Shown here: piece by piece, positions 31,900 to 56,915 of the stretch
Layout of the letters: each line of letters starts with the position of its first letter
How positions within the stretch are numbered: the stretch's first letter is position 1
NCBI GenBank assembly: GCA_947090765.1
Contig: OX352322.1
Span: 1,693,501 to 1,757,500 of the forward strand
Reading direction: 5' to 3'
DNA: 64,000 bases
Source of the DNA: Pseudomonas sp. MM223
GTDB taxonomy: Bacteria > Pseudomonadota > Gammaproteobacteria > Pseudomonadales > Pseudomonadaceae
Notes under the pieces: generated by a model
Told to the model about the DNA's origin: nothing
The model's database searches: none
What the model saw: only the letters and a program-made list of their open reading frames with translations
Made by a program: the position numbers and the translations under genes

Positions 31900-34235
<2,336 letters not shown>

Positions 34236-35081: not shown

Positions 35082-35083
35082 GC

Positions 35084-36166: not shown

Positions 36167-36169
36167 CGG

Positions 36170-36361
36170 ATGCCCACAACTGCTCGGATCGACAGGTCAG
36201 TTTTATCGAGATCTGTTCTGGTGTTTGCCTTCAGTACTTTTTTCTGTGGGCGAACATCTATTGCATGCGCTTACTCGAAGGGTAATGGCTGCGTAGAGGA
36301 TCGCAGGCAGCTAGATTTCGCGTGCCTGTCATCCTATCAGTCAAGATATTTTAGGGTGTGA
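36170..36361 (+). pseudogene. Probable N-terminal remnant of the ancestral O-antigen polymerase wzy
   Basis: A 63-codon frame begins 3 nt after wbpE and reads MPTTARIDRSVLSRSVLVFA, continuing with one hydrophobic helix. From memory this resembles the start of the P. aeruginosa O5 Wzy (ARVDRSIL...VLLFAF). The wzy gene lies at exactly this place, between wbpE and wzx, in that cluster. The rest of a polymerase of over 400 residues is absent. The similarity is short and recalled rather than computed, so this is an inference; an unrelated small frame is the alternative. Confidence 0.45.
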
Positions 36362-36365
36362 AGCG

Positions 36366-38960: not shown

Positions 38961-39101
38961 TAAAGATTCGAGCTTTTGAGGCGGTTTGTCCTGAGGCGAT
39001 GCCCTTGCAGCCGATATACTGCTTTGATTGTCATACATGCTGCGTCTGCTGCAGGGTAGCCCCGTCAGACAGGCCGATGAAAACGCTTTAGGAGGTGGAG
39101 A

Positions 39102-40235
39102 GTGGTTAAGGTATGTTCGCGCTGTGTCATGGACACGTCTGACGCTGAAATCGTGTTCGATGACGCGGGAGTGTGCAATCACTGCCATAAATTTGACAAC
39201 CTCCAGTCGCATCAGCTTTTTTCAGGCATTGATGGGGAGCGGCGCCTACAGTCTATTATTGACAAGATAAAAAAAGAGGGTGCCGGTAAAGAGTATGACT
39301 GCATCATTGGTCTCAGTGGTGGGGTTGATAGCTCTTATCTGGCCGTCAAAGTCAAAGATTTTGGTTTGCGGCCTTTGGTTGTGCACGTTGATGCAGGCTG
39401 GAATAGTGAGCTAGCGGTTAGCAATATTGAGAAAGTTATTAAGCATTGCGGTTATGATTTGCATACGCATGTAATGAATTGGGAGGAAATGCGTGATTTA
39501 CAGTTGGCGTACATGCGTGCGGCAGTTGCTAACCAAGATGTCCCGCAAGATCATGCGTACTTTTCGAATATGTACCACTTTGCTGTGAAGAACAAGATTA
39601 AGTACATTTTAAGTGGTGGTAATCTCGCGACAGAATCTGTATTTCCTGATAGCTGGCATGGTAGTGCCATGGATGCGATTAACCTCAAGGCTATTCATAA
39701 GTCATACGGGGGGCGCAAGCTTCAGGACTATAAAACTATTAGTTTCGGTGAGTATTACCTTTGGTACCCATTTGTCAAAGGTATGCGTACCGTGCGTCCG
39801 CTTAACTACATGGATTACGATAAGCGAAAGGCTGAGTCGTACTTGCAAGAAGTAATCGGGTATCGATCGTATGCGCACAAGCATGGCGAGTCGATCTTTA
39901 CCAAACTATTTCAGAATTATTATCTTCCTAAAAAATTTGGCTATGATAAGCGCAAGCTGCACTACTCTAGCATGGTGCTTTCGGGGCAAATGACTCGGCA
40001 AGAAGCCATTGATAAGCTGGCAGAGCCACTCTATGACGCTAGTGAACTGCAAGCTGATATTGAATATTTTTGCAAAAAAATGCGTATTACGTCCGCCGAG
40101 TTTGAGGTGTTGATGAGCGCGGAAATTCACGACTATACAGACTTTGGTAACTGGGACTCGCGCAAAAACCTGATGAAAAAAGTGCAGGGCATAGTTCAGC
40201 GGGTGCTGGGGCGTCGAATCAATGTCTATTCTTGA
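39102..40235 (+). CDS. wbpG: N-acetyl sugar amidotransferase WbpG (PP-loop)
   Basis: This is a 377-residue PP-loop ATPase. The ATP-binding motif GLSGGVDSSY is near residues 69-78. The N-terminus has paired cysteines (CSRCVMD and CNHCHKF), a probable zinc or Fe-S site. It activates an acetamido group with ATP and, using ammonia from HisH/HisF, turns it into an acetamidine, as in ManNAc3NAmA of P. aeruginosa O antigens. The start is GTG 39102 with GGAGG nearby (39092-39096). The 140 nt before it hold no gene. AT-rich codon use shows a horizontally acquired origin. Confidence 0.92.
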   Translation: MVKVCSRCVMDTSDAEIVFDDAGVCNHCHKFDNLQSHQLFSGIDGERRLQSIIDKIKKEGAGKEYDCIIGLSGGVDSSYLAVKVKDFGLRPLVVHVDAGWNSELAVSNIEKVIKHCGYDLHTHVMNWEEMRDLQLAYMRAAVANQDVPQDHAYFSNMYHFAVKNKIKYILSGGNLATESVFPDSWHGSAMDAINLKAIHKSYGGRKLQDYKTISFGEYYLWYPFVKGMRTVRPLNYMDYDKRKAESYLQEVIGYRSYAHKHGESIFTKLFQNYYLPKKFGYDKRKLHYSSMVLSGQMTRQEAIDKLAEPLYDASELQADIEYFCKKMRITSAEFEVLMSAEIHDYTDFGNWDSRKNLMKKVQGIVQRVLGRRINVYS

Positions 40236-40247
40236 GTGAGGGGTAAT

Positions 40248-41360
40248 ATGGCCAAGATCGCTCATTTGTCATCCGTCCATTCTAGATATGATGTTCGAAT
40301 ATTTCAAAAGCAGTGCAAAACGCTGGCGAAGGAAGGGCATGAAGTCTTCTTTGTTGTCGCTGACGGTAAAGGTGATGAAGTTAAAGATGGTGTTACGTTT
40401 GTCGATGTTGGAAAGCTGAGTGGGCGGCTTAACAGGATTTTTAAGACCACCAAGGCTCTTTATCGGAAGGCTGAAGCTCTGGGGGCCGAGCTCTATCATC
40501 TTCATGATCCAGAACTCATTCCTATTGGGCTAAAATTGAAGGCTCGGGGGAATGCTGTGATTTTTGATGCTCATGAAGATGTTCCCAAACAGATTTTGGG
40601 AAAGCCATATTTGAACAAGTATGTGCGTGGGTTTGTTTCACGAATTTTTGCATGTTACGAGTCATGGGCCTGCCGGAAATTGGATGCGGTGGTGGCGGCT
40701 ACGCCATACATACGCGACAAATTTCTTTCCTTAGGGGCTCGTACTATTGATATTAATAACTACCCTATCATTGATGAGTTGGTGGTCGGCAAAGTCTCTT
40801 GGGCGGAGAAGCGGCGTCAAGTCGTTTATATTGGCGGCTTAGAGGAAATACGCGGTATTCGTCAGATTGTACAAGGCGTTGAATTGGCTTCGACCAATAC
40901 GCAGCTTTCAATTGGCGGTGTTTTCACGGAGAAGAGCTTTGAATCCTCGGTAAAGAGCGAGCGAGGCTGGAGTAAGGTGGATTTCCTTGGGTGGCTGGAT
41001 CGCGAAGGCGTTAAGCAACTACTTGATAGTTCGATGGCGGGCCTAGTGACACTTCATCCAACGCCGAATTACTTGGATGCTCTGCCTGTGAAAATGTTTG
41101 AGTACATGGCTGTTGGTTTGCCCGTTATCGCATCTGATTTCCCGCTATGGAGGGATATCATTGACTCTAGTAAATGTGGAGTCTGTGTGAATCCTTTGGA
41201 TCCCCAGCAAATAGCAGGCTGCATCGATTATCTTGTATCTAATCCAGTTGAAGCAGAGGAAATGGGCCGGAATGGGCAGCGGGCCGTGCTTGATAAATAC
41301 AATTGGGGTGTAGAGGCTAAAAAACTAAGCCAATTCTATACTGATTTGCTAAAAGGCTGA
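40248..41360 (+). CDS. wbpH: Glycosyltransferase WbpH (GT4-like)
   Basis: ATG 40248, after GAGGGGTAAT, gives 370 residues. It is a GT-B-fold glycosyltransferase: N-terminal [33 protein letters not shown] and [10 protein letters not shown], and the C-terminal donor-binding region [19 protein letters not shown] near 288-306. It lies in the wbpG-wbpH-wbpI order of the P. aeruginosa O5 cluster, where WbpH transfers a ManNAc3NAc-type uronate. Exact linkage cannot be read from sequence. It is a peripheral inner-membrane enzyme. Confidence 0.83.
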
Positions 41361-41365
41361 TATTT

Positions 41366-42454
41366 ATGAAAGTTTTAACCGTTATCGGTGCACGCCCACA
41401 GTTCATCAAGGCAAGTGTAGTAAGTCATGTTATTTCCACGCTTCCAGGTGTGGATGAGGTCGTCGTTCACACTGGCCAGCACTTCGATTCAAACATGTCC
41501 GACGTGTTCTTCCAAGAGTTGGGGATGATAACCCCAGCCTACCAGCTTGATATTCACGGTGGGAGTCATGGTGACATGACTGGCAGGATGCTTATCGAGA
41601 TTGAGAAGGTACTGCTTCAAGAGCGCCCCGATGTCGTGCTTGTATACGGTGATACCAACTCAACGCTTGCGGGCGCGTTGGCCGCCGTCAAGCTTCATAT
41701 CCCTGTCGCTCACGTCGAAGCTGGCCTGCGTTCGTTCAACATGACGATGCCCGAAGAAGTGAATCGTATTCTCACTGATCGAGTATCCCGTTGGATGTTC
41801 ACACCAACCGCTACAGCCGTAGATCACTTAAAAGCCGAAGGTGTCAACGCTGCCAACATCATCCCGGTGGGTGATGTAATGTACGACGTCGCCAAATTCC
41901 ACGGTGAACGTGTTGATGCCAGTGGGCGAATCATGGCCAAGCTTGGTCTGAAGAAGGACAGGTTTGTATTGGCAACTGTCCACCGTGCCGAAAACACTGA
42001 CGATCCTGCTCGTCTTACCGCAATTGTTGAAGCTTTCCGCGATCTATCTACCGACTTACCGATCGTATGGCCGGTGCATCCGAGAACCAAAGCTGTTCTG
42101 CAGAAGCGTGGTCAGTTGGATGAAATGCCAGCAAACTTGCACCTCATCGACCCAGTCGGTTATCTGGACATGGTGCAGCTTGAAAAACATGCGGCACTCA
42201 TTGCCACTGATTCGGGCGGTGTCCAGAAAGAGGCGTTCTTCTACGGTGTCCCATGTGTAACTTTGCGTGATGAAACCGAATGGGTCGAGTTGGTCGAGGC
42301 AGGCTGGAACCGGCTGGTATCACCGAAATTTGCACATGAGGTAGCATCTGTCGTTCGCCAAGCGTTGGGCAGCAAAGGCGCGGCAGTGCAACCCTACGGC
42401 GAGGGGAATGCGGCCGAGCTGATCATCCGACGTCTTGTCGAGGATCTTGCTTAA
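41366..42454 (+). CDS. wbpI: UDP-2,3-diacetamido-glucuronate 2-epimerase WbpI
   Basis: This is a 362-residue WecB-like GT-B-fold epimerase: [46 protein letters not shown] and TDSGGVQKEAFF. WbpI inverts C2 of UDP-GlcNAc3NAcA to give UDP-ManNAc3NAcA, the last nucleotide-sugar step of the wbpA-B-E-D-I pathway. Cluster context separates it from the second epimerase (WecB, 62040-63251). Only 5 nt lie between wbpH and its ATG. Confidence 0.93.
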   Translation: MKVLTVIGARPQFIKASVVSHVISTLPGVDEVVVHTGQHFDSNMSDVFFQELGMITPAYQLDIHGGSHGDMTGRMLIEIEKVLLQERPDVVLVYGDTNSTLAGALAAVKLHIPVAHVEAGLRSFNMTMPEEVNRILTDRVSRWMFTPTATAVDHLKAEGVNAANIIPVGDVMYDVAKFHGERVDASGRIMAKLGLKKDRFVLATVHRAENTDDPARLTAIVEAFRDLSTDLPIVWPVHPRTKAVLQKRGQLDEMPANLHLIDPVGYLDMVQLEKHAALIATDSGGVQKEAFFYGVPCVTLRDETEWVELVEAGWNRLVSPKFAHEVASVVRQALGSKGAAVQPYGEGNAAELIIRRLVEDLA

Positions 42455-43680
42455 TGAAAAGCGTCTGGATTCTCAACCACTACGCCCAGGAACCAGGTGG
42501 CGCCGGAGGAACCCGGCATTACCAGTTGGCAAAAAACCTGCCAGCACATGGTTGGGAAGCAGCGATAGTTGCCGCTAGTGTGGAACACCAGTCTGGTCGG
42601 CAGCGGCTTGCTGAGTCGGAAACCGCCCGGCTCGATCAGTACGGCGGCGTTCCATTTCTATGGCTAAAAACCTCGGAATATAAAGGCAACGGCACGGCGC
42701 GTATGCGCAACATGCTGGAATTCACGTGGCAAGTGATTAAACCTGGCAAGCTTGCACTACTGAACAAGCCCGATGTAATCATCGGTTCGAGCGTCCACCC
42801 GTTCGCGGCGGCTGCCGGTGCAGTGCTTGCGTGGCGCCATAAGGTACCTTTCGTTTTCGAAGTGCGTGATCTTTGGCCAGAAACATTGATTGACATGGGA
42901 CGATTGGAGCGAAACAGCTTCGTTGCCCGCTCGCTTCGTGTATTGGAGAAGTGGCTATACAAGCGTGCTAAGCGCATTGTCGTATTGCTGCCAAAGGCAC
43001 ATGAGTACATAGTGCCTATGGGCATTGATCCCCGAAAGATTGTCTGGATCCCGAACGGCGTTGATCTGCAAGACTTCCCGTGCCCAGAGGATAAGGTATC
43101 TGAGGATGAGTTTACGCTGATGTATTTTGGCGCGCACGGTCCGGCCAATGGGTTGGATAATGTGCTGCGTGCACAGCAGATCATCGAGCAAAGGCCAGAA
43201 ATGTCCCATGTTCGGCTCCGGATTATCGGTAACGGCCCCTGCAAAACCGATTTGATTACCATGGCCGAAAAGTTTGGCCTCAAGCGTGTCAGCTTCGAAG
43301 ATCCTGTTCCAAAGAGGGATATTCCGGCACTTGCGGCGCAAGCGGATGCATTTGTCTTCAATCTGATCAACGCCCCGGTATTCAAGTACGGAATTAGTTC
43401 GAACAAGTTGTTCGATTTCATGGCCGGGCAGCGTCCTGTTCTGTTCTGCTGTGATGCGGGCAACAATCCCATCGAGGATTCTGGCGCCGGATATACCGTA
43501 CCGCCGGGCGACCCGGAGGCGCTGGCTGATGCGATCGCTACTTTGACCCAGATGCCAAGTGATGAAAGGGCAGCAATGGGACGTGCTGGTCGGCACTATG
43601 TGGAGGTTGAGCATGGTTTTGACAAACTTGCAGGAAGCTTGGCAAATTGCCTCAACGAGGCTTGTGGGACCAGCAGATGA
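42454..43680 (+). CDS. wbpJ: Glycosyltransferase WbpJ (GT4)
   Basis: This is a 408-residue GT-B protein starting MKSVWILNHYAQEPGGAGGT. It has PFVFEVRDLWPETLIDMG near 131-148, WIPNGVDLQDF near 195-205 and the donor-site GISSNKLFDFMAGQRPVLFC near 312-331. Its ATG overlaps the wbpI stop by one base, and its own stop overlaps the next gene by 4 nt. By position it is the WbpJ equivalent; donor and acceptor are not known. Confidence 0.85.
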   Translation: MKSVWILNHYAQEPGGAGGTRHYQLAKNLPAHGWEAAIVAASVEHQSGRQRLAESETARLDQYGGVPFLWLKTSEYKGNGTARMRNMLEFTWQVIKPGKLALLNKPDVIIGSSVHPFAAAAGAVLAWRHKVPFVFEVRDLWPETLIDMGRLERNSFVARSLRVLEKWLYKRAKRIVVLLPKAHEYIVPMGIDPRKIVWIPNGVDLQDFPCPEDKVSEDEFTLMYFGAHGPANGLDNVLRAQQIIEQRPEMSHVRLRIIGNGPCKTDLITMAEKFGLKRVSFEDPVPKRDIPALAAQADAFVFNLINAPVFKYGISSNKLFDFMAGQRPVLFCCDAGNNPIEDSGAGYTVPPGDPEALADAIATLTQMPSDERAAMGRAGRHYVEVEHGFDKLAGSLANCLNEACGTSR

Positions 43681-44267
43681 AAAGAGTGATTGATTTTTTC
43701 GGGGCATTGGTTGGATTGATCCTGATGTCCCCGGTCATATTGGTTGTAGCATTGCTGATCAAGCGTAGGCTCGGGGGGGCGGTTTTATTTCGGCAGGTCC
43801 GTCCTGGACTGGGCGGCAGGCCATTCGAAATGGTCAAGTTCCGCACGATGCGAGATGCCTATGACAAAAACGGTGCCCCATTGCCCGATTCGCAACGCAT
43901 GACGCCTTTCGGCAGCTTCCTGCGTTCTAGCAGCCTGGATGAGTTGCCTGAGTTATGGAATGTGCTTAAGGGTGACATGAGCCTTGTAGGGCCCCGGCCA
44001 CTGTTGATGGAATATCTGCCGCTCTATAACGAGCGGCAGTACCAGCGTCATCAGGTGCGGCCAGGTGTTACCGGGTGGGCCCAAATCAATGGTCGTAACG
44101 CGTTGGGTTGGCCTGAAAAATTCGAATTGGATGTTTGGTATGTAGAAAATCGTTCGCTTTGGCTAGATATCAAGATTATCGCTTTGACCGTCAAGAAAGT
44201 TGTAAAGAGAGACGACATCAACGCCAGCGGCGAGGCCACCATGCCTAAATTTACAGGCAAAGAGTAA
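43677..44267 (+). CDS. PglC-type phosphoglycosyl transferase (initiating enzyme)
   Basis: This is a 196-residue monotopic phosphoglycosyl transferase. A re-entrant hydrophobic helix (about 5-25) is followed by the catalytic Asp-Glu pair in SSLDELPELWNV near 84-95 and by DMSLVGPRPLLMEY. Small size and the DE motif match PglC, WcaJ catalytic domain and relatives. It should load a sugar phosphate, here probably UDP-diacetamido-trideoxyhexose, on undecaprenyl phosphate. It takes the place of WbpL, a polytopic enzyme, in the P. aeruginosa cluster. Start overlaps wbpJ (ATGA), and its stop overlaps the next gene (TAATG). Confidence 0.87.
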   Translation: MKRVIDFFGALVGLILMSPVILVVALLIKRRLGGAVLFRQVRPGLGGRPFEMVKFRTMRDAYDKNGAPLPDSQRMTPFGSFLRSSSLDELPELWNVLKGDMSLVGPRPLLMEYLPLYNERQYQRHQVRPGVTGWAQINGRNALGWPEKFELDVWYVENRSLWLDIKIIALTVKKVVKRDDINASGEATMPKFTGKE

Positions 44268-44887
44268 TGAGAAAACTCGCGATTCTTGGTGCCAGTGGGC
44301 ATGGGAAAGTGGTTGCGGATACCGCTGAGGCTTGCGGTTGGACGGAGATCGTATTCTTTGACGACGCGTGGCCCTCCCGTACATCCAATGGTGTTTGGGC
44401 GGTAGTGGGTACGGGCGAGGACTTTTTTGAAAAGGCCCATCAATTTGATGGGGTTCTGGTTGGCATTGGCAACAACGCTATACGCCAGTCGAAGCTCGCA
44501 ACGCTGGCCCTAAAGGGTGCTCCGTTGGCTACGCTTATCCACCCAGATGCTTACGTGAGTCGGCATGCCACTGTTGGGGCCGGAACGGTGGTTTTCGCAG
44601 GCGCGGTACTCAATATCGGAGCCTCCGTGGGGATAGGCGGAATTTTGAACACAGGTTGCAGCGTTGACCACGACTGTGCCCTAGGCGACGCCGTCCATAT
44701 CAGCCCAGGCGCCCGGCTTGCAGGTAGTGTAGCGGTAGGTCAGTGCTCATGGGTGGGTATCGGTGCTTGCGTGAAGCAGATGATTAACATCGCTGCTGAC
44801 GTGGTAGTAGGCGCTGGAGCCGCTGTTGTGTCTGATGTCGGCGAGGGAATGACAGTGGTTGGAGTGCCAGCCCGAAACTTAGAATAA
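44267..44887 (+). CDS. PglD-like sugar N-acetyltransferase
   Basis: This is a 206-residue protein of the NeuD/PglD family. The N-terminal UDP-sugar domain starts MRKLAILGASGHGKVVADTA. The C-terminal left-handed beta-helix has the catalytic His in NTGCSVDHDCALGD near 130, and the end VVGVPARNLE. It would acetylate the 4-amino group of a UDP-4-amino-trideoxysugar with acetyl-CoA, giving UDP-N,N'-diacetylbacillosamine or an isomer. The start overlaps the transferase stop by one base. A hairpin follows before the aminotransferase gene. Confidence 0.87.
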   Translation: MRKLAILGASGHGKVVADTAEACGWTEIVFFDDAWPSRTSNGVWAVVGTGEDFFEKAHQFDGVLVGIGNNAIRQSKLATLALKGAPLATLIHPDAYVSRHATVGAGTVVFAGAVLNIGASVGIGGILNTGCSVDHDCALGDAVHISPGARLAGSVAVGQCSWVGIGACVKQMINIAADVVVGAGAAVVSDVGEGMTVVGVPARNLE

Positions 44888-44906
44888 TTCCACGAAACTA
44901 CGGATG

Positions 44907-44944
44907 CGGCTGTAGACTGTGTGCTACAGCCGTCTGCATTTTTG
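44907..44944 (+). terminator. Terminator-like hairpin between pglD-like and pglE-like genes
   Basis: CGGCTGTAG (44907-44915) pairs with CTACAGCCG (44924-44932), followed by TCTGCATTTTT. It may end or attenuate part of the transcript before the aminotransferase gene. Confidence 0.6.
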
Positions 44945-44971
44945 CCAGCCTAATGAATCAGGATAAATTCA

Positions 44972-46150
44972 ATGCTGAATACCCCCTTTTCCCCTTGGCC
45001 GTCGTTCTCTGAAGAGGAAGCAAACTGCGCGCGCGACATCATTTTGTCCAATAAGGTCAATTACTGGACAGGGCAGGAGTGCCGTCAGTTCGAGCGTGAG
45101 TTCGCCGCTTGGGCTGGGACCGATTTTGCAGTCGCTGTTGCCAACGGTACGGTGGCCCTTGACTTGGCTCTGCTGGCCTTGGGGATTGGGGCGGGGGACG
45201 AGGTTATCGTAACCTCCCGGACCTTCCTGGCTTCGGTTTCCAGCATCATCAATGCTGGTGCTGTTCCTGTCTTTGCCGATGTGAATGCGGATTCTCAGAA
45301 TATCGATGCATCCACGATCAGCGCGGTGCTGTCTGCTCGTACCAAAGCCATCATCTGCGTACATCTGGCGGGATGGCCATGTGACATGGACCCTATCATG
45401 GCTCTAGCGGCTGAGCATGATATTCGTGTAATTGAAGATTGCGCGCAGGCTCATGGTGCGCTGTACAAAGGCCGAGCGGTGGGTTCCATTGGTGATATCG
45501 GCGCGTGGTCATTCTGCCAGGACAAGATCATGACCACGGGCGGTGAAGGCGGCATGGTAACCACGAATAACCGCGAGCTATGGTCGATAATGTGGTCGTT
45601 CAAGGATCACGGCAAGAGCTGGGACGCGGTCTATGATCGTCAGCACGCGCCCGGTTTCCGGTGGTTGCACGAGAGCTTTGGTACCAATTGGCGAATGCTT
45701 GAGGTACAAGGCGGCATCGGCAGAATTCAACTGAAGCGCATGCCTCAATGGCATCAATCGCGTTTGAGCAATGCTCGCCGCATCTGGGATTGTGCCAAAG
45801 GATTACCTGGATTGCGAGTTCCTGAAACTCCGGTTGACTTCGTGCATGCTGCCTATAAGTGCTACGTGTTCGTGGAGCCCGAGCAGCTAGCCGAAGGGTG
45901 GAGCCGTGATCGCATTCTGAACGAAATCAATTTGTTGGGCGTGCCGTGTTTTTCAGGCTCGTGCTCTGAGGTTTATCTCGAAAAAGCATTCGATGGGACC
46001 GGCTGGCGCCCGGAGCAAAGTTTGCCGGTCGCTCGGCAATTGGGTGAAACCAGCCTGATGTTCCTAGTTCACCCCACTTTGACTGAAACCGAGATCGCAA
46101 AGACTTGCGAGATGTTGACCCAGGTAATGTACGACGCGACTGGTCGATGA
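44972..46150 (+). CDS. PglE-like aminotransferase (DegT/DnrJ/EryC1)
   Basis: This is a 392-residue PLP enzyme. VANGTVALDLALLALGIGAG is near 54-73, VIEDCAQAHGA near 152 and the likely Schiff-base lysine lies in SFCQDKIMTTGGEGGM near 183-198. It should transaminate the 4-keto sugar formed by WbpM, to give a UDP-4-amino-trideoxy-GlcNAc. With PglD-like and PglC-like genes upstream and WbpM downstream it makes a complete route to a bacillosamine-type initiating sugar. PerA-like stereochemistry cannot be excluded. Confidence 0.87.
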   Translation: MLNTPFSPWPSFSEEEANCARDIILSNKVNYWTGQECRQFEREFAAWAGTDFAVAVANGTVALDLALLALGIGAGDEVIVTSRTFLASVSSIINAGAVPVFADVNADSQNIDASTISAVLSARTKAIICVHLAGWPCDMDPIMALAAEHDIRVIEDCAQAHGALYKGRAVGSIGDIGAWSFCQDKIMTTGGEGGMVTTNNRELWSIMWSFKDHGKSWDAVYDRQHAPGFRWLHESFGTNWRMLEVQGGIGRIQLKRMPQWHQSRLSNARRIWDCAKGLPGLRVPETPVDFVHAAYKCYVFVEPEQLAEGWSRDRILNEINLLGVPCFSGSCSEVYLEKAFDGTGWRPEQSLPVARQLGETSLMFLVHPTLTETEIAKTCEMLTQVMYDATGR

Positions 46151-46302
46151 GGTAGTGGTCGGCCACCAAGCGATTATACGTTAGGTAAGGGCCAGCTGGT
46201 TTTATTTCTTGTTTATGGTCGGCTCATCGCCAGGGACAGGAAGCTTGTATGAAATGGAATAGGAAGGGGTCTGGTTTGGTTCGGAGTCAGGAGAGTAAAC
46301 GG

Positions 46303-48300
46303 ATGACGGATAAGCTGCGTACGGGGATGCTAATGTTACCCCGGCGCTACAAACGCGCCCTTCAGGTCGTTACTGACGTTTTGTTGGTTTGGTTCGCCTT
46401 GTGGTTAGCGTTTTTGGTTCGTCTTGGAATAGATGAAATCTATGATCCACTGCGTTTGCACTACTGGTTGTTTCTAGCTGCGCCGATCATCGCAATACCT
46501 ATTTTTATCCGTTTTGGCATGTATCGTGCCGTGATGCGCTATTTCGGCAATGATGCGTTGATTGCAATTGGGAAGGCAGTATCACTATCTTCACTGATCC
46601 TCGCCTTGGTCGTTTATTGGCACAGCAATCATACCGCAATCGTACCTCGCTCGATCGTGTTCAATTACTGGTGGCTGAGTTTGGTATTAATTGGTGGGCT
46701 GCGCCTAATCATGCGCCAGTATTTTCTCGGTGATTGGTTCGCCGCCAGGCAGTATGTGCCCTTCACTAGCCGTGACAATGGGTTGCCGAAAGTCGCTATC
46801 TACGGTGCAGGTGCTGCTGGAAATCAGTTGATAGCTGCCCTTCGAATTGGTCGCACAATGCATCCGGTTGCATTCATCGATGATGACGAGAGTGTTGCAG
46901 ATCGAATTATATCTGGGCTGCAGGTGTTTCGAAGCAATGACATCCAGAAAATGATCGATACAACGGGCGCGGAAGAGATCCTTCTGGCCATACCATCGGC
47001 GAGTCGCGTACGTCGCCGTGAAATTCTGGCGTTACTTGAGAATTTCCCTTTGCATGTGCGCAGTGTTCCTGGCTTCATGGACTTGGCGAGCGGCAGAGTT
47101 AAAGTTGATGACATTCAAGAAGTCGATATTGCTGACTTGTTGGGGCGCGATGCCGTTCCAGCCCAAGAGGATCTACTTGCCCGTTGTGTAACAGGTCAAG
47201 TGGTCATGGTGACTGGCGCTGGAGGCTCAATCGGCTCCGAATTGTGCCGCCAGATCCTCATGCTCGAACCTAAAGCGTTGCTTCTGTTTGAACATAGTGA
47301 GTTCAATCTCTATAGTATTCATGGTGAGTTGGAGCAGCGCATACGCCGTGAGTCACTATCGGTGCGCCTCGTACCCTTTTTAGGCTCAATTCGTAACTAT
47401 AAGCACTTGGTCGATACCATGACGATGTGGGGCGTCAACACTGTCTATCACGCGGCCGCCTACAAGCACGTCCCTATGGTGGAGCACAATATTGCCGAAG
47501 GTGTCCTCAATAATGTTATTGGCACGTTGAATACGGCGCAGGCAGCGCTTCGAGCTAATGTAGCAAACTTTGTTTTGATTTCGACCGACAAAGCAGTTCG
47601 TCCAACTAATGTGATGGGTAGTACCAAACGCTTGGCAGAACTGGTTTTGCAGGCATTGAGCAAGGAGGTCGCACCGGTATTATTCGGAGATTCCAGTAAT
47701 GTTGCCAGGGTAAATAAAACTCGCTTTACGATGGTGCGTTTCGGCAATGTTCTCGGATCGTCGGGGTCGGTAATTCCACTATTCCGTAAGCAAATCAAAG
47801 CCGGCGGACCGTTGACGGTCACTCACCCAAAAATTACACGTTACTTCATGACCATCCCTGAGGCTGCTCAATTGGTGATTCAGGCTGGGTCAATGGGGTT
47901 GGGAGGTGATGTGTTCGTGTTGGATATGGGGGCGCCTGTTAGGATTGCGGAGTTGGCTGAAAAAATGATCCACCTGTCCGGTTTGAGTGTGAGGTCCGAA
48001 AATAATCCTCATGGTGATATCGCTATTGAGTTCACTGGGTTGCGACCAGGAGAGAAACTCTATGAGGAACTTTTGATTGGCGACAACGTGTCGCCCACTT
48101 TGCATCGAATGATTCTGACGGCAAGTGAGGATTTTATGCTTTGGGACGCGCTCAGAGAACGATTGGCACATTTGCTCAAAGCAGTCGAAAACGAGGATTT
48201 TGCAGTTGTTCGTCAGTTACTTAGAGAGTTGGTCAGCGGCTATACTCCCGAAGGGGAAATCGTTGATTGGGTCTATCAGCAACGCTTGAGAGATGTCTAA
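46303..48300 (+). CDS. wbpM: UDP-GlcNAc 4,6-dehydratase WbpM (PglF/CapD family)
   Basis: ATG 46303 (AGGAG at 46290-46294) gives 665 residues, the length of P. aeruginosa WbpM; an in-frame ATG at 46249 adds 18 residues without homology. Four N-terminal membrane helices (about 15-125) precede a CoA-binding-like Rossmann domain (IYGAGAAGNQLIAAL near 165) and a catalytic SDR domain (VTGAGGSIGSELCRQI near 305). STDKAVRPTNVMGSTKR near 425 has Met in place of the SDR tyrosine, as is usual in this family. It forms the 4-keto-6-deoxy intermediate for the initiating sugar and is needed for all O-antigen made here. Confidence 0.95.
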   Translation: MTDKLRTGMLMLPRRYKRALQVVTDVLLVWFALWLAFLVRLGIDEIYDPLRLHYWLFLAAPIIAIPIFIRFGMYRAVMRYFGNDALIAIGKAVSLSSLILALVVYWHSNHTAIVPRSIVFNYWWLSLVLIGGLRLIMRQYFLGDWFAARQYVPFTSRDNGLPKVAIYGAGAAGNQLIAALRIGRTMHPVAFIDDDESVADRIISGLQVFRSNDIQKMIDTTGAEEILLAIPSASRVRRREILALLENFPLHVRSVPGFMDLASGRVKVDDIQEVDIADLLGRDAVPAQEDLLARCVTGQVVMVTGAGGSIGSELCRQILMLEPKALLLFEHSEFNLYSIHGELEQRIRRESLSVRLVPFLGSIRNYKHLVDTMTMWGVNTVYHAAAYKHVPMVEHNIAEGVLNNVIGTLNTAQAALRANVANFVLISTDKAVRPTNVMGSTKRLAELVLQALSKEVAPVLFGDSSNVARVNKTRFTMVRFGNVLGSSGSVIPLFRKQIKAGGPLTVTHPKITRYFMTIPEAAQLVIQAGSMGLGGDVFVLDMGAPVRIAELAEKMIHLSGLSVRSENNPHGDIAIEFTGLRPGEKLYEELLIGDNVSPTLHRMILTASEDFMLWDALRERLAHLLKAVENEDFAVVRQLLRELVSGYTPEGEIVDWVYQQRLRDV

Positions 48301-48466: not shown

Positions 48467-49603
48467 TTATGGCAAGGCTTTTCGTCTAGATGCCGAGCAC
48501 AGCGCTAAAGCGGTGGGAACAAGCAGGTAAGTAAAATACTTGCCAGCTATCAGCAGTAGTATTGCAGTTAATATCAGTGATAGGGCGACCATAGAGAGGT
48601 GGTCCGATTTTACTGAAAGTACATCGGCTATGCCTCTCAATGCGGGTGTGGTTATAAGAAAGATGAAGAACAAAGCTCCAAGCAGTCCTGTTTCTTGCCA
48701 GACAGACATTATGTTGTGTATGTATCCACCCTCTTCATATTCCCCGTAGGCGCCTAATATAGGGTTTGCGAGTATTTTGTCGATGCCCTCTTTAGACATT
48801 CTGTCGCGCTCGTTGCTTGAGTTGTCGTTTTTGAGATCTGCTAGCGCTGTGATTCTGCTCTCAGGTAACTTAACTGTTTCGGTTGTAATAGCAATTAGGA
48901 TGAGGCTCAGTGCAGTGAATGCCAGTATTATTGGGGTCGACTTATTCTTGAAGCTTAAGAATTCTAGTGTGGCTACAAAAAATATATAGCCTGCAAATTC
49001 GCTCCTTGCAGAGTTGATGAAAAGGCAGGTCAATGCAGTTATGTGCACTAAGTTGCGTAAAAGGCGTGAGTTGGTTTTGGCTGCGATGAAAACCGTAGCC
49101 ACCATATAGCAAAAGGCGAATGTTTGGTAACTAGGTATAATGCCTACATCGTCCGAAATATCCCTCAATGCAAACCTGCCATCTTGGCTTAGGAGGATTA
49201 TAGAAGCTGAGGCCATTGCCCAGCCTAGCGTTATGATCCAGGATTCATTCTCTCTATTTGAAAATACTTTTTTGCATAAAATGAATACAGCAATGCTTTG
49301 CGCGATGGATATCAAGTGCCAGTTCATCAGTGATTTGTCGGCAGTTTGAAAGCCATGCCATATTGCTATTAATGCAAAAGCAATGAGGAATAGCAAGAAT
49401 GCGAGGTCTATTGATTGTATTCTTCTTGTCTTGATGGTATCGATGGTGTAGATGGGCAGGATTGCCAGTAAAGACACGGTGCACATTAGGCCGAAAAAGC
49501 CAGCGTTTATCGGTGGGAGGACATGCTGTGAAATGGCGACGTAGTACAGGATTGTTCCTGGGAAAGTAAGAGCAAATAGTATGTTGTAAATTCTGATAAG
49601 CAT
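48467..49603 (-). CDS. Wzy-like O-antigen polymerase
   Basis: This 378-residue polytopic protein has about ten membrane helices. Its C-terminal loop ILANPILGAYGEYEEGGYIH, then NIMSVWQETGLLGALFF, matches the Wzy/O-antigen ligase pattern NPhhG...HN...hxExGhhG. In its place a Wzy adds the repeat units in the periplasm. It is on the opposite strand to the rest of the cluster, has very low GC and unusual codon use, and lies next to an IS66, so it looks recently acquired. A WaaL-type ligase is the alternative. It could compensate for the lost ancestral wzy. Confidence 0.8.
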   Translation of the reverse strand: MLIRIYNILFALTFPGTILYYVAISQHVLPPINAGFFGLMCTVSLLAILPIYTIDTIKTRRIQSIDLAFLLFLIAFALIAIWHGFQTADKSLMNWHLISIAQSIAVFILCKKVFSNRENESWIITLGWAMASASIILLSQDGRFALRDISDDVGIIPSYQTFAFCYMVATVFIAAKTNSRLLRNLVHITALTCLFINSARSEFAGYIFFVATLEFLSFKNKSTPIILAFTALSLILIAITTETVKLPESRITALADLKNDNSSNERDRMSKEGIDKILANPILGAYGEYEEGGYIHNIMSVWQETGLLGALFFIFLITTPALRGIADVLSVKSDHLSMVALSLILTAILLLIAGKYFTYLLVPTALALCSASRRKALP

Positions 49604-49841
49604 GACAGTCCTGTTCAGTGCGCCTAACGTTATAGCGAATCATAACCCAAGTGTGAACAGGCCTCTATGGATTGCTGAAAAAACGGAACAGGCAGCGCGT
49701 ATCGCCCCGATTAGCTGTGGAAAATCCTTTCCATGGTGGGGTATCAAGCGTTTTTTGTATCCGCTCCACGAACCCCACATTCCAAGCAAATAGCTGCAGC
49801 CCGATGCTGCGCTCCTCGAGTATTTCTGGAGCCTGCCTGCC

Positions 49842-50180
49842 ATGATGCATCCCGACAGTAAAGTCGGGAGAGTCTACCTCTACCCCAAACCCGTGGACTT
49901 TCGAAAGTCCATCGACGGCCTGACCGTACTGGTCGAACTGGAAATCAAGGTCGCGGTGTTCGACCCCGTACTTTTCGTCTTCCTCAACAAAGCCCGAAAC
50001 CGCATCAAGGTGTTGTATCGGGAGCGCAACGGCTTCAGCTTGTGGCTCAAGCGCCTGGAAGCCGAGCGTTTCAAAACCTCGCCCGATGCTACCGATGAAC
50101 ACATTGTGCTGACCGTCCAGGAGCTTAATTGGATATTTAATGGCTTCGATCTCTGGCGCAACCGTCCGCATCAGGTTTAG
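49842..50180 (+). CDS. tnpB: IS66 accessory protein TnpB
   Basis: This is a 112-residue protein with the IS66 Orf2 signature VYLYPKPVDFRKSIDGLTVL (about residues 11-30) and VLYRERNGFSLWLKRLE. TnpB is needed for IS66 transposition together with TnpA and TnpC. The frame is intact although the rest of the element has decayed. A second, shorter remnant of the same gene lies at 56740-56910. Confidence 0.88.
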   Translation: MMHPDSKVGRVYLYPKPVDFRKSIDGLTVLVELEIKVAVFDPVLFVFLNKARNRIKVLYRERNGFSLWLKRLEAERFKTSPDATDEHIVLTVQELNWIFNGFDLWRNRPHQV

Positions 50181-50218
50181 ACACCCCATTTCGTCGCCTG
50201 ACCCGGATAATCCAGGCT

Positions 50219-51743
50219 ATGATTTCAGTGCCCGATGACCTTCCCGACGACCCAGCCGTGCTCAAACAAGGCTTGCGCAGTTGTTGGCTGAGCGCACGGT
50301 CGACTAGGACCAGATCGTCGATCTTAAAGAGCAGATCAAGCTACTGCGCGATCGACTGTTCAACCGCAAATTCGAGCAGCCCGTCGAGCCCAATACACCG
50401 TAATTGGCGTTGTTCAACGAGCCCGAAAGCCTGTGTGTGCCTGCCGCTGATGATGCTGAGGAAGACGTCGTTGCGCCGACCCCGCGCCGCGGCGAGCGCA
50501 AGCCACTGTCGGCCGACTTGTCACGTATTGAGATCATCCACGACCTGCCCGAGCATGAACTGACCTGCGCCTGTGGTTGCCGCAAGCATGTCATTGGCGA
50601 AGAAATCAGCGAGTAGCTCGACATCGTGCCGATGCAGATTCGTGTGCTCAAACACGTGCGCAAGGTCTACGACTGCCGTGGCTGCGAAATCGCGCCGGTC
50701 ACCGCTGATAAACCCGCTCAATTGATTAAGAAGAGCATGGCCAGCCCCAGCGTGCTGGCCATGCTGCTGACCACCAAGTACGTCGATGATCTGCCACTGC
50801 ACCGCTTCGAAACGGTGCTGAGTCGGCACGGGACCGTAATCCTCCGGCAAACCCTGGCGCATTGGGTGATCCAATGCAGCGAACACTTCCAGCCGCTGTT
50901 GAACCTGATGCGTGACCGCTTGCTGGAAAGCCCGGTGATCCACTACGATGAAATGCGGGTACAGGAGCTCAAAGTTACGGATCGCGACCCGACCATCCAG
51001 TCCTGGATTTGGGGGCAGGCCAGTGGCCCACCTGATCGACAGATCGTTAGTTCGACTACACCACCAGCCGTGCGCAGGAAGTGCTATTACGCCTGCTGGA
51101 AGGGTATCGCGGCTACGTGATGACCGATGATTACGCCGGCTACAACGCATTGGCGTTGCAGCCCATTGTGGAGCGGCTGGCGTGTATGGTTCATTCGTGA
51201 CGCAAGTTCGTAGAATCGCAGAAAGTGCAGCCCAAGGGTAAGACGGGCCGGAGCGATATTGCGCTATGATCAACAAGCTGTATGGCATCGAGCGCGACCT
51301 CCAGGAAGTCAGCGTTGAACGGCGGTTCATCGCTCGTCAGGAAAGAAGCCTGCGATCCTCGGTCAGTTGAAAAGCTGGCTGGATAAACGCAGTCCCAAGT
51401 GACGCCACAAAGTGTGTTGGGCAAGGTGGTGCAATATCTGGCGAATAACTGGAGTCGGTTGGAGCGCTATGTCGAGGCCGGTCATTTGCCGATCAACAAC
51501 AACCTCGCGGAGCGCGCGATCAAGCCGTTTGTCATCGGGCGCAAGGCGTGGCTGTTCAGCGATATGCCCAACGGCGCCACGGCCAGTACGCAAATCTACA
51601 GTTTGGTCGAGACCGCCAAGATCGGCGGCCAAGAGCACTACACGTGGCTGCGCCACGTGCTTGAGCGACTGCCGCGTGCATCGTCCGCAGCAGATTACGA
51701 AGTGCTGCTGCCGTGGAAATGCTCGCCAGAGATGCCACGGTAA
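50219..51743 (+). pseudogene. IS66 transposase TnpC, multiply broken
   Basis: Pieces of one TnpC can be followed: MISVPDDLPDDPAVLKQ; QIVDLKEQIKLLRDRLFNRK; RRGERKPLSADLSRIEIIHD; the zinc-like CACGCRKHVIGEEIS; SVLAMLLTTKYVDDLPLHRF; YRGYVMTDDYAGYNALA; and the C-terminus [20 protein letters not shown]. They are separated by in-frame stops (TAG near 50305, TAA near 50401, TAG near 50614, TGA near 51198) and frameshifts. No active transposase can be made. Confidence 0.87.
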
Positions 51744-52219: not shown

Positions 52220-53557
52220 ATGCCTAAGCCCAACATGATCAAAGCATCCCTAATCGCCTTAGCTCTTCTAATAACAAATACGGCTTTTTCTGACGACAAG
52301 CCAAGCTACAACGACATAAATGCAATATCAAAAATAGGAAGCTCAAGCTTAGAGTGGAGCAAGACAGTTGCAAACTTAACCAATGAACCATTATGGAGTT
52401 TGCGCGATGCTTATGATGCTTCGCACACACTTATGATTCCAATGCACTTCGCCTTCGCCGCGGGCGACGCTAAAGGTGTAGAGCAATTTGAACACCTGAT
52501 CTCCCAATTTACGCAGCAGGAACTTCCCGGTGGGCAGCTTAACCAAGCGCAGTGGCTTTACTTTGTTACACGCTACCTCGCACTAAGGGCCGAATTCAAC
52601 TACGAATTTAGTAAAAGCGATGCTTACCTCGTCCAAAGAGTCGCCGCTTGGCTGCATAACAGATGGATGTACGAACCAGCCTACCAGTGGGGGCAGCTCC
52701 CTCTTACCGGTACAAAATCAAGAATGACCTTAATTAGCTCTACTTCCAAATCATGGCCGCTGAGCTATTACCCAGCTGTAACGGACTATGAGCTATTCTT
52801 GTTCTCCGCAGCATCTGATATTAGATTTATCACAAAAAAATTTCCAGAAACTATAAAGCTTCAATCCAAGGAAATTAGTGCCAGCATTGAAGAGCTGGCG
52901 GCCACAGGAATTGCTGTGGTCCGCGAGCGCGGAACGTTTACCGGCAATGGAGGATGGCTATTCCAAGTTGGGACTTGGACTGATCACCCTGATTTCCGAT
53001 TCGCCGGACACACGAAAATTGAAGAAAACCTCAGCGAACAGCGCTTAAAGGACATCGCTGAAGATTCTTCACACTCGCATCGCTGGCCATTGTTTTTCCG
53101 GAGCATGATTATTGCCTCCGACGATAAGCCACAAGATAGAGATCTGCTACTAAAATCCTACCATGGATTCTCAAAGCAATTTGCCAATAATGTTGTTGTG
53201 ATATGTGACGGATCAGTATTTCTAAACAATTACATGAACGGCAGTAATGGTCTCTACCGATACAAATACGCAACCATTGGCAAAAATGACAAGCTTGGAT
53301 ATGGCCCCAGCGCCCTTAGCGGCATTCTTGGAGAAAGCTGGTATCCGTTTTCCTCTGGCGTTGCAAATATATACGAGACCTACGAACGATCTTACCCTCT
53401 GTCAGAAAGTACTATTGACCTGTATGTAGGTCCTAACACAACCAGAGACCGCAATCCGCTTTTCGTTTGGCCGCAATTTTTCACTGACGGCTTTGCTGGC
53501 CTTATCGCGAAGCAGGGCGCATACATAGCCAAGCATTATTCATTAGATGCAAAGTAG
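52220..53557 (+). CDS. Secreted protein of unknown function, 445 residues
   Basis: I do not recognise this family. The start is ATG 52220 or ATG 52235; the latter gives the signal peptide MIKASLIALALLITNTAFSD. The mature protein of about 420 residues is rich in aromatic residues and amphipathic helices (for example AQWLYFVTRYLALRAEFNYE, WLHNRWMYEPAYQWGQLPL), a look shared with helical-barrel carbohydrate enzymes such as lyases and epimerases. This resemblance is impressionistic. GC is low and codon use unlike the core. It lies between two IS66 remnants, beside a secreted C5-epimerase-like gene, which suggests a polysaccharide-related role in the periplasm. Confidence 0.72.
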   Translation: MPKPNMIKASLIALALLITNTAFSDDKPSYNDINAISKIGSSSLEWSKTVANLTNEPLWSLRDAYDASHTLMIPMHFAFAAGDAKGVEQFEHLISQFTQQELPGGQLNQAQWLYFVTRYLALRAEFNYEFSKSDAYLVQRVAAWLHNRWMYEPAYQWGQLPLTGTKSRMTLISSTSKSWPLSYYPAVTDYELFLFSAASDIRFITKKFPETIKLQSKEISASIEELAATGIAVVRERGTFTGNGGWLFQVGTWTDHPDFRFAGHTKIEENLSEQRLKDIAEDSSHSHRWPLFFRSMIIASDDKPQDRDLLLKSYHGFSKQFANNVVVICDGSVFLNNYMNGSNGLYRYKYATIGKNDKLGYGPSALSGILGESWYPFSSGVANIYETYERSYPLSESTIDLYVGPNTTRDRNPLFVWPQFFTDGFAGLIAKQGAYIAKHYSLDAK

Positions 53558-53604: not shown

Positions 53605-53629
53605 GGCGGAAAGATGGCTTTCCGCCTTT
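53605..53629. terminator. Hairpin after the secreted-protein gene
   Basis: GGCGGAAAG / CTTTCCGCC form a 9-bp stem with a 4-nt loop, followed by TTTA. It is about 50 nt after the stop of the 445-residue gene. Confidence 0.6.
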
Positions 53630-54134
53630 AGGGCGCCTTCATTTTTTGAATCACCTCCGCGCACGCCGGCCCGGCTATTCGGCTTCGCTCAAGCGCTGCT
53701 GCGCAGCTGCCCGCCATTCGGTCAGACTCTTCAAGCAATCTTCCGAGCACCACGACGGTAGAGGCTCCTGCCTGGCGCTGCTGGATAGCGATGGCACTGC
53801 AGGTTGCTGATCGCCCGGCGCGCAATCGGTAGATTTCCCTGTGCAAGCCGATAGCAGAAGACTCAGCGTCAGCGGCGCGGCCTTGGGCCAGTTTCTGTCG
53901 TGCTCTCTCACCCACTTCGTCCGCCACGGTCTGGCGACGCTGTTCTTGCTGTCGGACCTGGACAGTGGCACGTCGGTCGCGCTCGGCAACCTCCTGGCGG
54001 TAGTCGGCCAGTTCGCCATGGGCTGTCGCTGTGTCACTTTGCTCAACCACCAACCGGTACTGCTGGCCGCCGGCAACCTGCAGTAGGGCGATCAGCCACC
54101 AGCACCAGGCCGATACCGCAGCAAGCCAGTTCAT
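53628..54134 (-). CDS. Phage DUF2514 (Rz-like spanin) protein, prophage remnant
   Basis: This is a 168-residue protein with an N-terminal membrane helix (MNWLAAVSAWCWWLIALLQV), a long alanine/glutamine-rich coiled coil (ADYRQEVAERDRRATVQVRQ) and the C-terminal pattern AAALERSRIAGPACAEVIQ typical of DUF2514 proteins of Pseudomonas prophages. Such proteins are thought to act like Rz in host lysis. The frame is intact. Its ATG overlaps the end of a broken lysis-module gene (ATGA). No other phage genes remain nearby, so it has no obvious function here. Confidence 0.8.
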   Translation of the reverse strand: MNWLAAVSAWCWWLIALLQVAGGQQYRLVVEQSDTATAHGELADYRQEVAERDRRATVQVRQQEQRRQTVADEVGERARQKLAQGRAADAESSAIGLHREIYRLRAGRSATCSAIAIQQRQAGASTVVVLGRLLEESDRMAGSCAAALERSRIAGPACAEVIQKMKAP

Positions 54135-54612: not shown

Positions 54613-54802
54613 GGGTTCTATCCAGGCAAAAGACCCCGCGGGGTGGGCGGGTATTGGGGGCGGTCAGCAGCGGTTGTTGCCCTGTGAAAGGAATCCGCGG
54701 CGTCAACAAATCAACCAATAAGTGGAAATCCAAAGGAAATTAAATGAAAATGCTGCCCATTTGATCTGACCAGCACCGATAAAATCAGGAATCCTGCACA
54801 AC

Positions 54803-56467
54803 ATGGATATGAAGAAAGCTTGCTTCGCAGCCATACTTTCAGCTGCAACACAATGCGTTTTTGCTGATGAAGTTGTTTCGAGAAATGTAGAAGGAAAATG
54901 CCCATCCATAGGTGTTGCTGAGCGCACGCCTTACGCCCCTGGCCTTTCCTATGCAACTAGCGGTAAATTCACATTACGGGAAGATGGCATTACTCTTTTT
55001 GACTACGGAACCAATTATAATAATCTGGGTAAATGGGCAAACCCTTATTTCAATTCAAACTTCGCATATGCGCTGTATCGTGATTGGCTGCAAACCAAAT
55101 GTACCGATGACGACCTGAAGAATAAGTTCCTTCGTGTAGCTGATTGGTATATTGAAACTGCTGAATTCAAGAACGGAATGGCTTTATGGACCTACCCATT
55201 CCACAATCAGTATTTTGATCTTGATCCTGGCTGGATTTCCGGCATCGGGCAGGCACGTGTCGCCGGCGTCCTTTACCGGGCTAATGCCGTATCGCCAAAA
55301 GAGTCTTACAAGAAAACAGCTGATCTCGCTATGGAGGCATACACCCATGAAATCACTGAAGGCGGCGTCATAACTCGAGACAATGGCGTGACTTGGATCG
55401 AGGAGGCCCCGGATCCTAAGGGGCGCAGTTTTAAGGTTTTAAACGGTCACATCACAGCCCTTTCTGGGCTTGTAGATATTTACGAAATCACCAAGGATCA
55501 AAGATGGAAAAATCTTATACACCAGGGTGAGGCTGCCGTCTCTCGCGATCTTACCAAATTCGATGGCGGTTTCATTTCATTCTTTTCACTTGACTGGCCA
55601 TCGCCTACCCGTCGCATGTCGGAGAGAGGAGGGTACAACTCTCTACATGTTGAACAGTTGCTCTGGATGTATGAATATTTCCAAGAGCCGAAGTACCTAA
55701 AATGGGCTTCACACTTCCAGTCCTACGAAATGAACAGTGACAAATATACTGCATCATATTCGGTTAACGCAAAAACCAATGGCCCAGAAAGGACAAAGGC
55801 TATTCTCTTTGGCGCATCATGGACTACAAATGAATACCCAACCACATTCACTGTAACCCCTGAGAAGCCGACAAGGGTTAAAGGAATTGCTATCGACGCA
55901 TTGGACCTTGCACGACGCCCAATTGATTTTACAGTTGTTGCCTACATGAGTGGACGAGAAGTCGCTAGGAAAGAAATAGTTGGTAATGAAGAGCTCTGGA
56001 CCGACGTCCTTTTCAAGTTCCCGGTTAAGGCGGACAAGATAGATATCACATTCACAAAAGGCGACAGAATTACGGCTATCACATCGATTATGGCCATCCG
56101 TCGTGATGTTGACCTTGCTCCTGTGACAAACCGTTGTAACTACCGCCGAAAATCTGGGACAAATGATATCGTCTACACCTTAAACGGCGCCATGAGCGAA
56201 GACCCGAACGAGAAAATGCCAGTACGGTGTGACGGATGGGTATTCCTACCGATGGAGAAGGGTAAACCTTATCTTCGAGTAAAAGCCCACGGCGTCAAAG
56301 GTGCAGAATTCACGGTCCTAGAAAGCTGGGACATGAAGAAGTGGAAGGAAGTTAAACGAGTCCCGATCGCGTCTGGTGAGCGGATACGCATCAATGCCAA
56401 GTACGCCAAGCTCGAGTTCAAGCGTGAAGCACATGAAATCACAGAGATCAGTACAGCAGTGAACTGA
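54803..56467 (+). CDS. Secreted D-glucuronyl C5-epimerase-like protein
   Basis: This is a 554-residue protein with a signal peptide (MDMKKACFAAILSAATQCVF, cleavage after about 22). Residues about 60-330 look like the C-terminal catalytic domain of glucuronyl C5-epimerases: YFDLDPGWISGIGQARVAGV near 135-155, VLNGHITALSGLVDIYEIT near 213-231 and YNSLHVEQLLWMYEYF near 276-291. Residues about 335-554 form two beta-rich parts resembling carbohydrate-binding modules. Such enzymes invert C5 of uronic acid residues within a polymer. Here the likely substrate is the 2,3-diacetamido-mannuronate of the wbp O-antigen, giving L-guluronate; this is inference. CAGGAAT upstream supports ATG 54803. Low GC marks it as acquired; a strong terminator follows. 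Confidence 0.75.
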   Translation: MDMKKACFAAILSAATQCVFADEVVSRNVEGKCPSIGVAERTPYAPGLSYATSGKFTLREDGITLFDYGTNYNNLGKWANPYFNSNFAYALYRDWLQTKCTDDDLKNKFLRVADWYIETAEFKNGMALWTYPFHNQYFDLDPGWISGIGQARVAGVLYRANAVSPKESYKKTADLAMEAYTHEITEGGVITRDNGVTWIEEAPDPKGRSFKVLNGHITALSGLVDIYEITKDQRWKNLIHQGEAAVSRDLTKFDGGFISFFSLDWPSPTRRMSERGGYNSLHVEQLLWMYEYFQEPKYLKWASHFQSYEMNSDKYTASYSVNAKTNGPERTKAILFGASWTTNEYPTTFTVTPEKPTRVKGIAIDALDLARRPIDFTVVAYMSGREVARKEIVGNEELWTDVLFKFPVKADKIDITFTKGDRITAITSIMAIRRDVDLAPVTNRCNYRRKSGTNDIVYTLNGAMSEDPNEKMPVRCDGWVFLPMEKGKPYLRVKAHGVKGAEFTVLESWDMKKWKEVKRVPIASGERIRINAKYAKLEFKREAHEITEISTAVN

Positions 56468-56655: not shown

Positions 56656-56915
56656 GTAAGCGCTCCATGAACCCCACATTCAAAGCGCTTACCTGACCCC
56701 GGATGCTGTGCTCCCGATTGTTTTCTGGAACTCGCCGACCATGATGTAATCGGACGCCAAAGTCGAAAATTGTACCTCTACCCTAAGCTCGTCGACTTTC
56801 GAAAATCCATTGATGGCCTGGTCGAGCTCGATATCAAGGTGGCGGTTTTCGACCTAGTGCTTTTCGTTTTCCTCAACAAGGCACGCAATCGCGTGAAGAT
56901 CCTTTACTGGCGTGT
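56656..56915 (+). mobile_element. Second IS66-family remnant (left end plus tnpB fragment)
   Basis: GTAAGCGCTCCATGAACCCC at 56656 is a good IS66 left end and aligns with the left end at 49757. It is followed by a decayed tnpB: YLYPK..VDFRKSIDGL..., then VFDLVLFVFLNKARNRVKIL. About 18 nt of tnpB are missing relative to the first copy, and the element stops near 56910. Confidence 0.82.

What the first reader, a model, noticed from the sequence alone, without database searches (positions are those of the whole stretch)
54803..56467. Exported uronate C5-epimerase in an island beside an O-antigen cluster that makes D-manno-uronates
Seen: a signal peptide and motifs like those of the glucuronyl C5-epimerase catalytic domain (DPGWISGIGQ, YNSLHVEQLLW), 6 kb from a complete wbpA/B/D/E/I set. 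Known: these enzymes invert C5 of uronic acids in finished polymers such as heparosan or alginate-like chains, and some Pseudomonas O antigens contain both ManNAc3NAcA and its C5 epimer GulNAc3NAcA. Inference: this protein may convert part of the D-manno residues to L-gulo in the periplasm after Wzx export, a step with no obvious enzyme in the core wbp pathway. It could thus be a polymer-level O-antigen tailoring system.
Basis: partly seen in the sequence, partly recalled or inferred. Interest (0 to 1): 0.85.

Follow-up and report, generated by a model that had tools for sequence, protein, structure and literature searches.

The report
Phage-derived O-antigen C5-epimerase beside wbp cluster
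A gene next to a bacterial surface-sugar cluster looks like a virus-delivered enzyme that inverts one carbon of finished surface sugar chains, which could explain how strains with the same sugar genes come to carry different sugars; no activity has been tested yet.

Summary

Relatives lie inside three O5-type wbp clusters. Others sit in temperate phages beside tail or lysis genes, in Pseudomonas often beside the D3-type tailspike, where phage D3 keeps its serotype-converting genes. Two proviruses hold epimerase + Wzy-beta + Iap-like. The window gene nests among the phage copies, and its island also holds a spanin and a D3-like Wzy-beta.

Best reading: a captured phage serotype-conversion cassette whose exported C5-epimerase turns D-manno into L-gulo uronates in the O antigen. 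This would fill a gap in print: P. aeruginosa O5 and O18/O20 share their Wzy but differ by this epimer. This copy may be idle (F261; wzx reads in two frames). Nothing was assayed.

The parts
54803..56467 (+). E: exported C5-epimerase-type protein, 554 aa
   Evidence: ORF, PF06662, model and fold match, phage clade
55187..55720 (+). catalytic C5-epim_C domain of E, residues 129-306, with E201, F261, Y278
   Evidence: Pfam stretch; residues by alignment
55733..56107 (+). beta-sandwich of E, about residues 311-435, like CBM32/F5-8C modules
48467..49603 (-). Wzy-beta-like O-antigen polymerase, 42% identical to phage D3 Wzy-beta
   Evidence: phrog_19842
53628..54134 (-). phage Rz-like spanin ORF
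   Evidence: phrog_312, E 1.4e-23; 67% over 148 aa to L016 prophage ORF
49755..51740 (+). IS66 element, transposase in two frames
56674..56913 (+). IS66 fragment
52220..53557 (+). X: unknown protein with signal-like start, also in the G357 island (61%)
   Evidence: no Pfam, NCBIfam match
31891..48300 (+). wbp-type O-antigen cluster, wbpA- to wbpM-like; supplies the proposed substrate
   Evidence: likeness to clusters in L015, L017, L041, L042

Best explanation
E is a periplasmic C5-epimerase that came with a temperate phage as part of a serotype-conversion cassette (Wzy-beta plus epimerase) and is now stranded beside wbpM. After Wzx and Wzy have flipped and joined the repeats, E removes and returns the C5 proton of a di-N-acyl D-mannuronate, so that it becomes L-gulo and the beta-D link becomes alpha-L without being broken, as in alginate. 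For the phage this alters an O-antigen receptor: D3-type tailspikes are relatives of an O5 O-antigen lyase that acts by beta-elimination. Shown: fold, conserved E201/Y278, export-type start, phage ancestry, phage slot, linkage to wbp clusters. Inferred: the activity, which residue is changed, superinfection exclusion, and that this diverged copy still works.
For: Domain, model and fold. Invariant E201 and Y278 in 20 of 20 distinct rows. Homologues inside three wbp clusters and smaller PF06662 proteins beside wbpM in G357 and G245. PF06662 and a close wbpD together in 7 of 10 PF06662 genomes against 40 of 388 others, p 1.9e-5. Fifteen P. aeruginosa phages carry it beside a D3-type spike. L031/L032: E + Wzy-beta + Iap-like + spike. 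Window E groups with phage L029 at 100/99. Third codon positions differ far more than second ones (339 against 88 of 554).
Against: F261 in place of the Y of 19 of 20 rows; the equivalent of GLCE Y500 is A, and that of R563 is not conserved. wzx reads in two frames. The signal-like stretch is the weakest of the 20. No Iap and no tailspike in the window island. The wbpD statistic ignores phylogeny; the 15 phages are one near-identical lineage. No assay.
Confidence: 0.72

Rival explanations
1. The family works as above, but the window copy is a decaying or idle remnant and this strain makes no epimerised O antigen. This overlaps the best explanation; the confidence is for this copy being idle.
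For: F261, wzx in two frames, IS66 pieces on both sides, weak signal stretch.
Against: Intact 554-codon ORF and a substitution pattern of purifying selection against L029, which does not exclude recent decay.
Confidence: 0.4
2. E is a lyase or other cleaving enzyme on the O antigen: epimerases and lyases share the proton-abstraction step, and a receptor-destroying lyase would also suit a phage.
For: Same chemistry in part (recalled); not all GLCE active-site residues are kept.
Against: Copies inside wbp biosynthesis clusters would destroy their own product; best fold is GLCE by a wide margin.
Confidence: 0.1
3. E acts on another polymer (an exopolysaccharide or alginate-like chain), and its place beside wbp is chance.
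For: PF06662 also occurs in other contexts: 3 of the 10 PF06662 genomes have no close wbpD.
Against: Three wbp-internal homologues and the D3-type spike slot.
Confidence: 0.06
4. The phage protein is a virion (tail) component and not a conversion factor.
For: It lies beside tail genes in phages and has sugar-binding-like beta-sandwiches.
Against: All phage copies compared have a hydrophobic export-type start; chromosomal copies lie in biosynthesis clusters without tail genes in view.
Confidence: 0.05

Closest known systems
Glucuronyl C5-epimerase (human GLCE and zebrafish homologue; PF06662)
   Different: 20% identity over 270 residues; GLCE Y560, Y500 and R563 equivalents not kept in this copy; C-terminal CBM32-like sandwich and a further beta domain; presumed N-acylated D-mannuronate substrate
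Phage D3 serotype-converting unit (wzy-beta, oac, iap)
   Same: Wzy-beta relative in the island; phage E genes occupy the slot beside the same tailspike; in L031/L032 E sits with Wzy-beta and an Iap-like stretch
   Different: C5 inversion in place of acetylation; window island has no Iap or tailspike found
Alginate epimerases AlgG/AlgE
   Same: Proposed reaction: D-mannuronate to L-guluronate in the finished polymer, outside the cytoplasm (recalled)
   Different: Beta-helix fold (recalled, not tested here)

Membership tests
Glucuronyl C5-epimerase family (PF06662) | C5-epim_C domain above the curated cut-off | tested here: met
   101.9 bits against 23.3
Glucuronyl C5-epimerase family (PF06662) | GLCE-type (alpha/alpha) catalytic fold | tested here: met
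Glucuronyl C5-epimerase family (PF06662) | GLCE E499 and Y578 equivalents (roles recalled) | tested here: met
   E201, Y278, 20 of 20 rows
Glucuronyl C5-epimerase family (PF06662) | GLCE Y560 equivalent (role recalled) | tested here: not met
   F261 in the window copy; Y in the 19 other rows
Glucuronyl C5-epimerase family (PF06662) | C5-epimerase activity on a polymer | not testable with these tools
   needs an assay
D3-type serotype-converting unit | Wzy-beta polymerase | tested here: met
   42% over 97% to D3 Wzy-beta
D3-type serotype-converting unit | Iap inhibitor | tested here: not met
   no convincing tblastn match in 48000-58200; a 31-aa protein can be missed
D3-type serotype-converting unit | Place beside tailspike and lysis genes of a phage | tested here: inconclusive
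   window: spanin only, no spike; phage relatives: yes
D3-type serotype-converting unit | Change of O serotype in the carrier | not testable with these tools
   needs O-antigen analysis

The most novel reading that the evidence does not exclude
Phage-borne exported C5-epimerases of this family are the unidentified genes that separate the L-gulo serotypes of P. aeruginosa (O18/O20, and O2 by deduction) from the D-manno ones (O5, O16). The CF23a type (epimerase without Wzy-beta) would give alpha-linked L-gulo O antigen; the L031 type (epimerase + Wzy-beta + Iap-like) beta-linked L-gulo. C5 inversion of a finished polymer would be a new chemistry of phage serotype conversion.
Probability: 0.6. 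Interest if true: 0.93.

Novelty: new variant of a known kind. Interest (0 to 1): 0.86.

Why it matters
A 2025 review says that P. aeruginosa O5 and O18/O20 have identical Wzy polymerases yet carry D-manno or L-gulo residues, that O2/O16 behave alike, and that the mechanism needs further investigation (PMC12004945, section 8 read). A 2016 paper says that the O2-serogroup clusters are identical and that the genes for the O5/O16 linkage difference must therefore lie elsewhere, which proved to be phage genes (PMC4815439, introduction read). This family offers an enzyme, a carrier and a mechanism for the epimer difference too. It would add stereo-inversion of a finished polymer to the known phage conversion chemistries, and could give a genetic marker for serotypes whose clusters look alike.

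Tried and rejected
The first genome-contig scan with E alone found no relative; the alignment scan found 5 loci, of which 3 lie in wbp clusters, 1 (Achromobacter) in a prophage-like stretch, and 1 (Pseudaminobacter, partial) at a contig edge with neighbours I did not identify. Plasmids: one weak Deinococcus hit for E, none for X. X has no phage hit and a poor two-sequence model (pLDDT 47), so the idea that X is a matching lyase was dropped. No AlgG/AlgE-type entry is among the 50 rows shown, which proves nothing. The codon method gave no usable dS (saturated), so only dN and codon-position counts are quoted. The L039 phage copy reads as two ORFs and was left out of the alignment of 20, as were the partial L043 and the copies identical to L040 or others (4 of 24 rows dropped as duplicates). 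In the tree L016, L017, L063 and L041 are long branches, the root is a midpoint, and I put the Achromobacter row in the phage group by its neighbours. Of 18 IMG/VR contigs I listed neighbours for 14.

Papers: timed out; two GLCE mechanism papers and a P. aeruginosa LPS review are not held, so residue roles are recalled. Searches gave no paper; others listed 5, 7, 5, 20 (of 315) and 9 (of 10) papers, none of which reports a phage C5-epimerase in its title or the start of abstract shown. The find passages of PMC2997053 were not relevant; those of PMC3210612 mention L-gulo uronates in other O antigens. The mSystems lung-phage paper (PMC6550368), which I recall as the source of the MK5110xx phages, has no hit for serotype, O-antigen, LPS, epimerase or CF23a (find only).

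Full report

ACTIVE SITE. Among 20 distinct family rows (24 less 4 duplicates) the equivalents of GLCE E499 and Y578 (E201, Y278) are invariant. The Y560 equivalent is Y in 19 and F only in the window copy. The Y500 equivalent is A, M or V in 16 and Y in 4; the R563 equivalent (position 264) varies. The residue aligned with Y278 is Y in the free GLCE chain and F in the chain of the entries with substrate or product. Residue roles and GLCE numbering are recalled; the papers were not held. So the family keeps a core pair, while this copy may be altered or weakened.

LINK TO THE O-ANTIGEN PATHWAY. In genome G060 the homologue (30% identity) sits inside an O5-type wbp cluster between wbpH- and wbpI-like genes; G060 is taken to be Pseudomonas taeanensis MS-3 because contig length and place agree. 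In Pseudomonas sp. 10-1B it lies between hisF2- and wbpG-like genes, in Marinobacter sp. BGYM27 between wbpG- and wbpH-like genes. In G357 and G245 a smaller PF06662 protein lies directly beside wbpM; G357's island also holds relatives of the window's X (61%) and Wzy (33%), and IS66. Of 398 genus genomes sampled, 10 have PF06662, 47 a close wbpD (E at most 1e-60), 7 both (odds ratio 20, p 1.9e-5; no correction for phylogeny, and wbpD stands in for the cluster). In the window, WbpG, WbpI and a NeuD/PglD-type acetyltransferase pass curated cut-offs and a DegT aminotransferase is present. I infer a repeat with ManNAc3NAcA, ManNAc3NAmA and a bacillosamine-type sugar.

LINK TO PHAGES. tblastn of E against 50,697 phage records hits 15 P. 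aeruginosa phages (MK511001-11, MK511013-16) at 40% identity over 95%, annotated hypothetical, and one Bradyrhizobium phage weakly. In CF23a the gene follows a tail protein that is 94.7% identical to D3 orf27. In D3, iap, oac and wzy-beta lie between that tail protein and the endolysin. Of 27 phage records with a D3-type spike over at least 80% of its length, 15 carry E, 11 carry Wzy-beta, none both, and 1, a 15-kb record, neither. MK511012, of the same accession series, matches the spike over only 20% and has no E hit. The 15 are one near-identical lineage, so this is few independent events. IMG/VR scans gave 18 distinct contigs with a relative, one of them (L063) the small type. In L031 and L032 the order is E, Wzy-beta (90% to D3), Iap-like stretch (59% over 22 aa), D3-type spike (83%), with no Oac hit: E stands in for the O-acetylase. 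For 13 of the 17 full-length-type contigs I listed neighbours: in these 13 a tail fibre/spike or lysis gene is next to E or one gene away, named by PHROGs or by similarity. A prophage in G342 has an OafA-like acyltransferase and a divergent PF06662 protein between a D3-like endolysin and a D3-type spike.

ORIGIN OF THE WINDOW COPY. A maximum-likelihood tree joins it to phage L029 (70% identity) with support 100/99, within a phage group of 98/98; the wbp-cluster copies form another group (94/97) (midpoint root). A spanin ORF lies upstream of it in divergent orientation (phrog_312), the same layout as in L029 although the spanin family differs. Its island partner is the D3-like Wzy-beta. Three wzy-like genes of the other clusters have no match in the window, so Wzy-beta may be this cluster's only polymerase; I did not search exhaustively. 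GC is 0.47 for E and 0.43 for Wzy, near wbpM (0.49) and well below gyrA (0.63).

MECHANISM. Exported E would meet the polymer after Wzx and Wzy. Inverting C5 of a beta-D-mannuronate gives alpha-L-guluronate without touching the bond (recalled chemistry). The D3-type spike of L031 matches a solved spike labelled gp27 along its whole solved part and gp49 at E 9e-75; LKA1 gp49 is 32% identical to the D3 spike and is reported to be an O5 O-antigen lyase cutting by beta-elimination (PMC5701251, passages read). Changing C5 should spoil such a cut, so exclusion of rival phages is a natural benefit (inference).

WHAT IS IN PRINT. D3 turns O5 into O16; iap and wzy-beta are responsible; O2 and O16 strains express the converting unit; the O2-serogroup clusters are identical; O5 and O16 have identical sugars (PMC4815439, introduction read; passages). 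O5 and O18/O20 have identical Wzy and differ in epimeric D-mannose/L-gulose residues, O2/O16 likewise, and the proposed cause is a speculation about Wzy (PMC12004945, section 8 read). That O2 is the L-gulo partner is my deduction. A superinfection-exclusion review has no hit for 'epimer' (PMC11436027, find), nor does the YA3 phage paper for 'epimerase' (PMC7326022, find). My searches showed no paper on a phage C5-epimerase; the library holds open-licence papers only, so this is not proof of novelty.

CAVEATS. No activity was measured. wzx of this strain reads in two frames, F261 is odd, and the island is littered with IS66 pieces, so this copy may be idle even if the family works as proposed.

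Noticed in passing
window 36327-37597: The wzx-like flippase gene reads in two different frames (36327-36794 and 36785-37597), so it is broken in this assembly or really split.
   Followed up: partly
window 52220-53557; L017 3953-5299: X, an exported-looking protein without Pfam or NCBIfam match, found in only 2 of 398 genus genomes, both times in the island beside wbpM.
   Followed up: partly
L021 6543-10742; L022 9506-13714: Proteins of about 1400 aa with two PF06662 stretches each, in polysaccharide clusters that also hold wbpI/wbpE-like genes.
   Followed up: no
L020 9191-10195: A second small PF06662 protein in G245, beside ORFs weakly like a phage spike and an integrase.
   Followed up: no
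L016 8221-11031: Prophage conversion slot with an OafA-like acyltransferase plus a divergent PF06662 protein: perhaps another pairing of modifications.
   Followed up: partly
L039 9941-11645: The phage epimerase-like gene reads as two ORFs here, while near relatives are intact.
   Followed up: no
window 48467-49603 (phrog_19842): PHROGs files the Wzy-beta family as 'polymerase' under DNA/RNA metabolism, which looks like a mislabelled O-antigen polymerase.
   Followed up: no
window 25221-26588: A 455-codon ORF made of a repeated unit, probably a non-coding repeat array.
   Followed up: no
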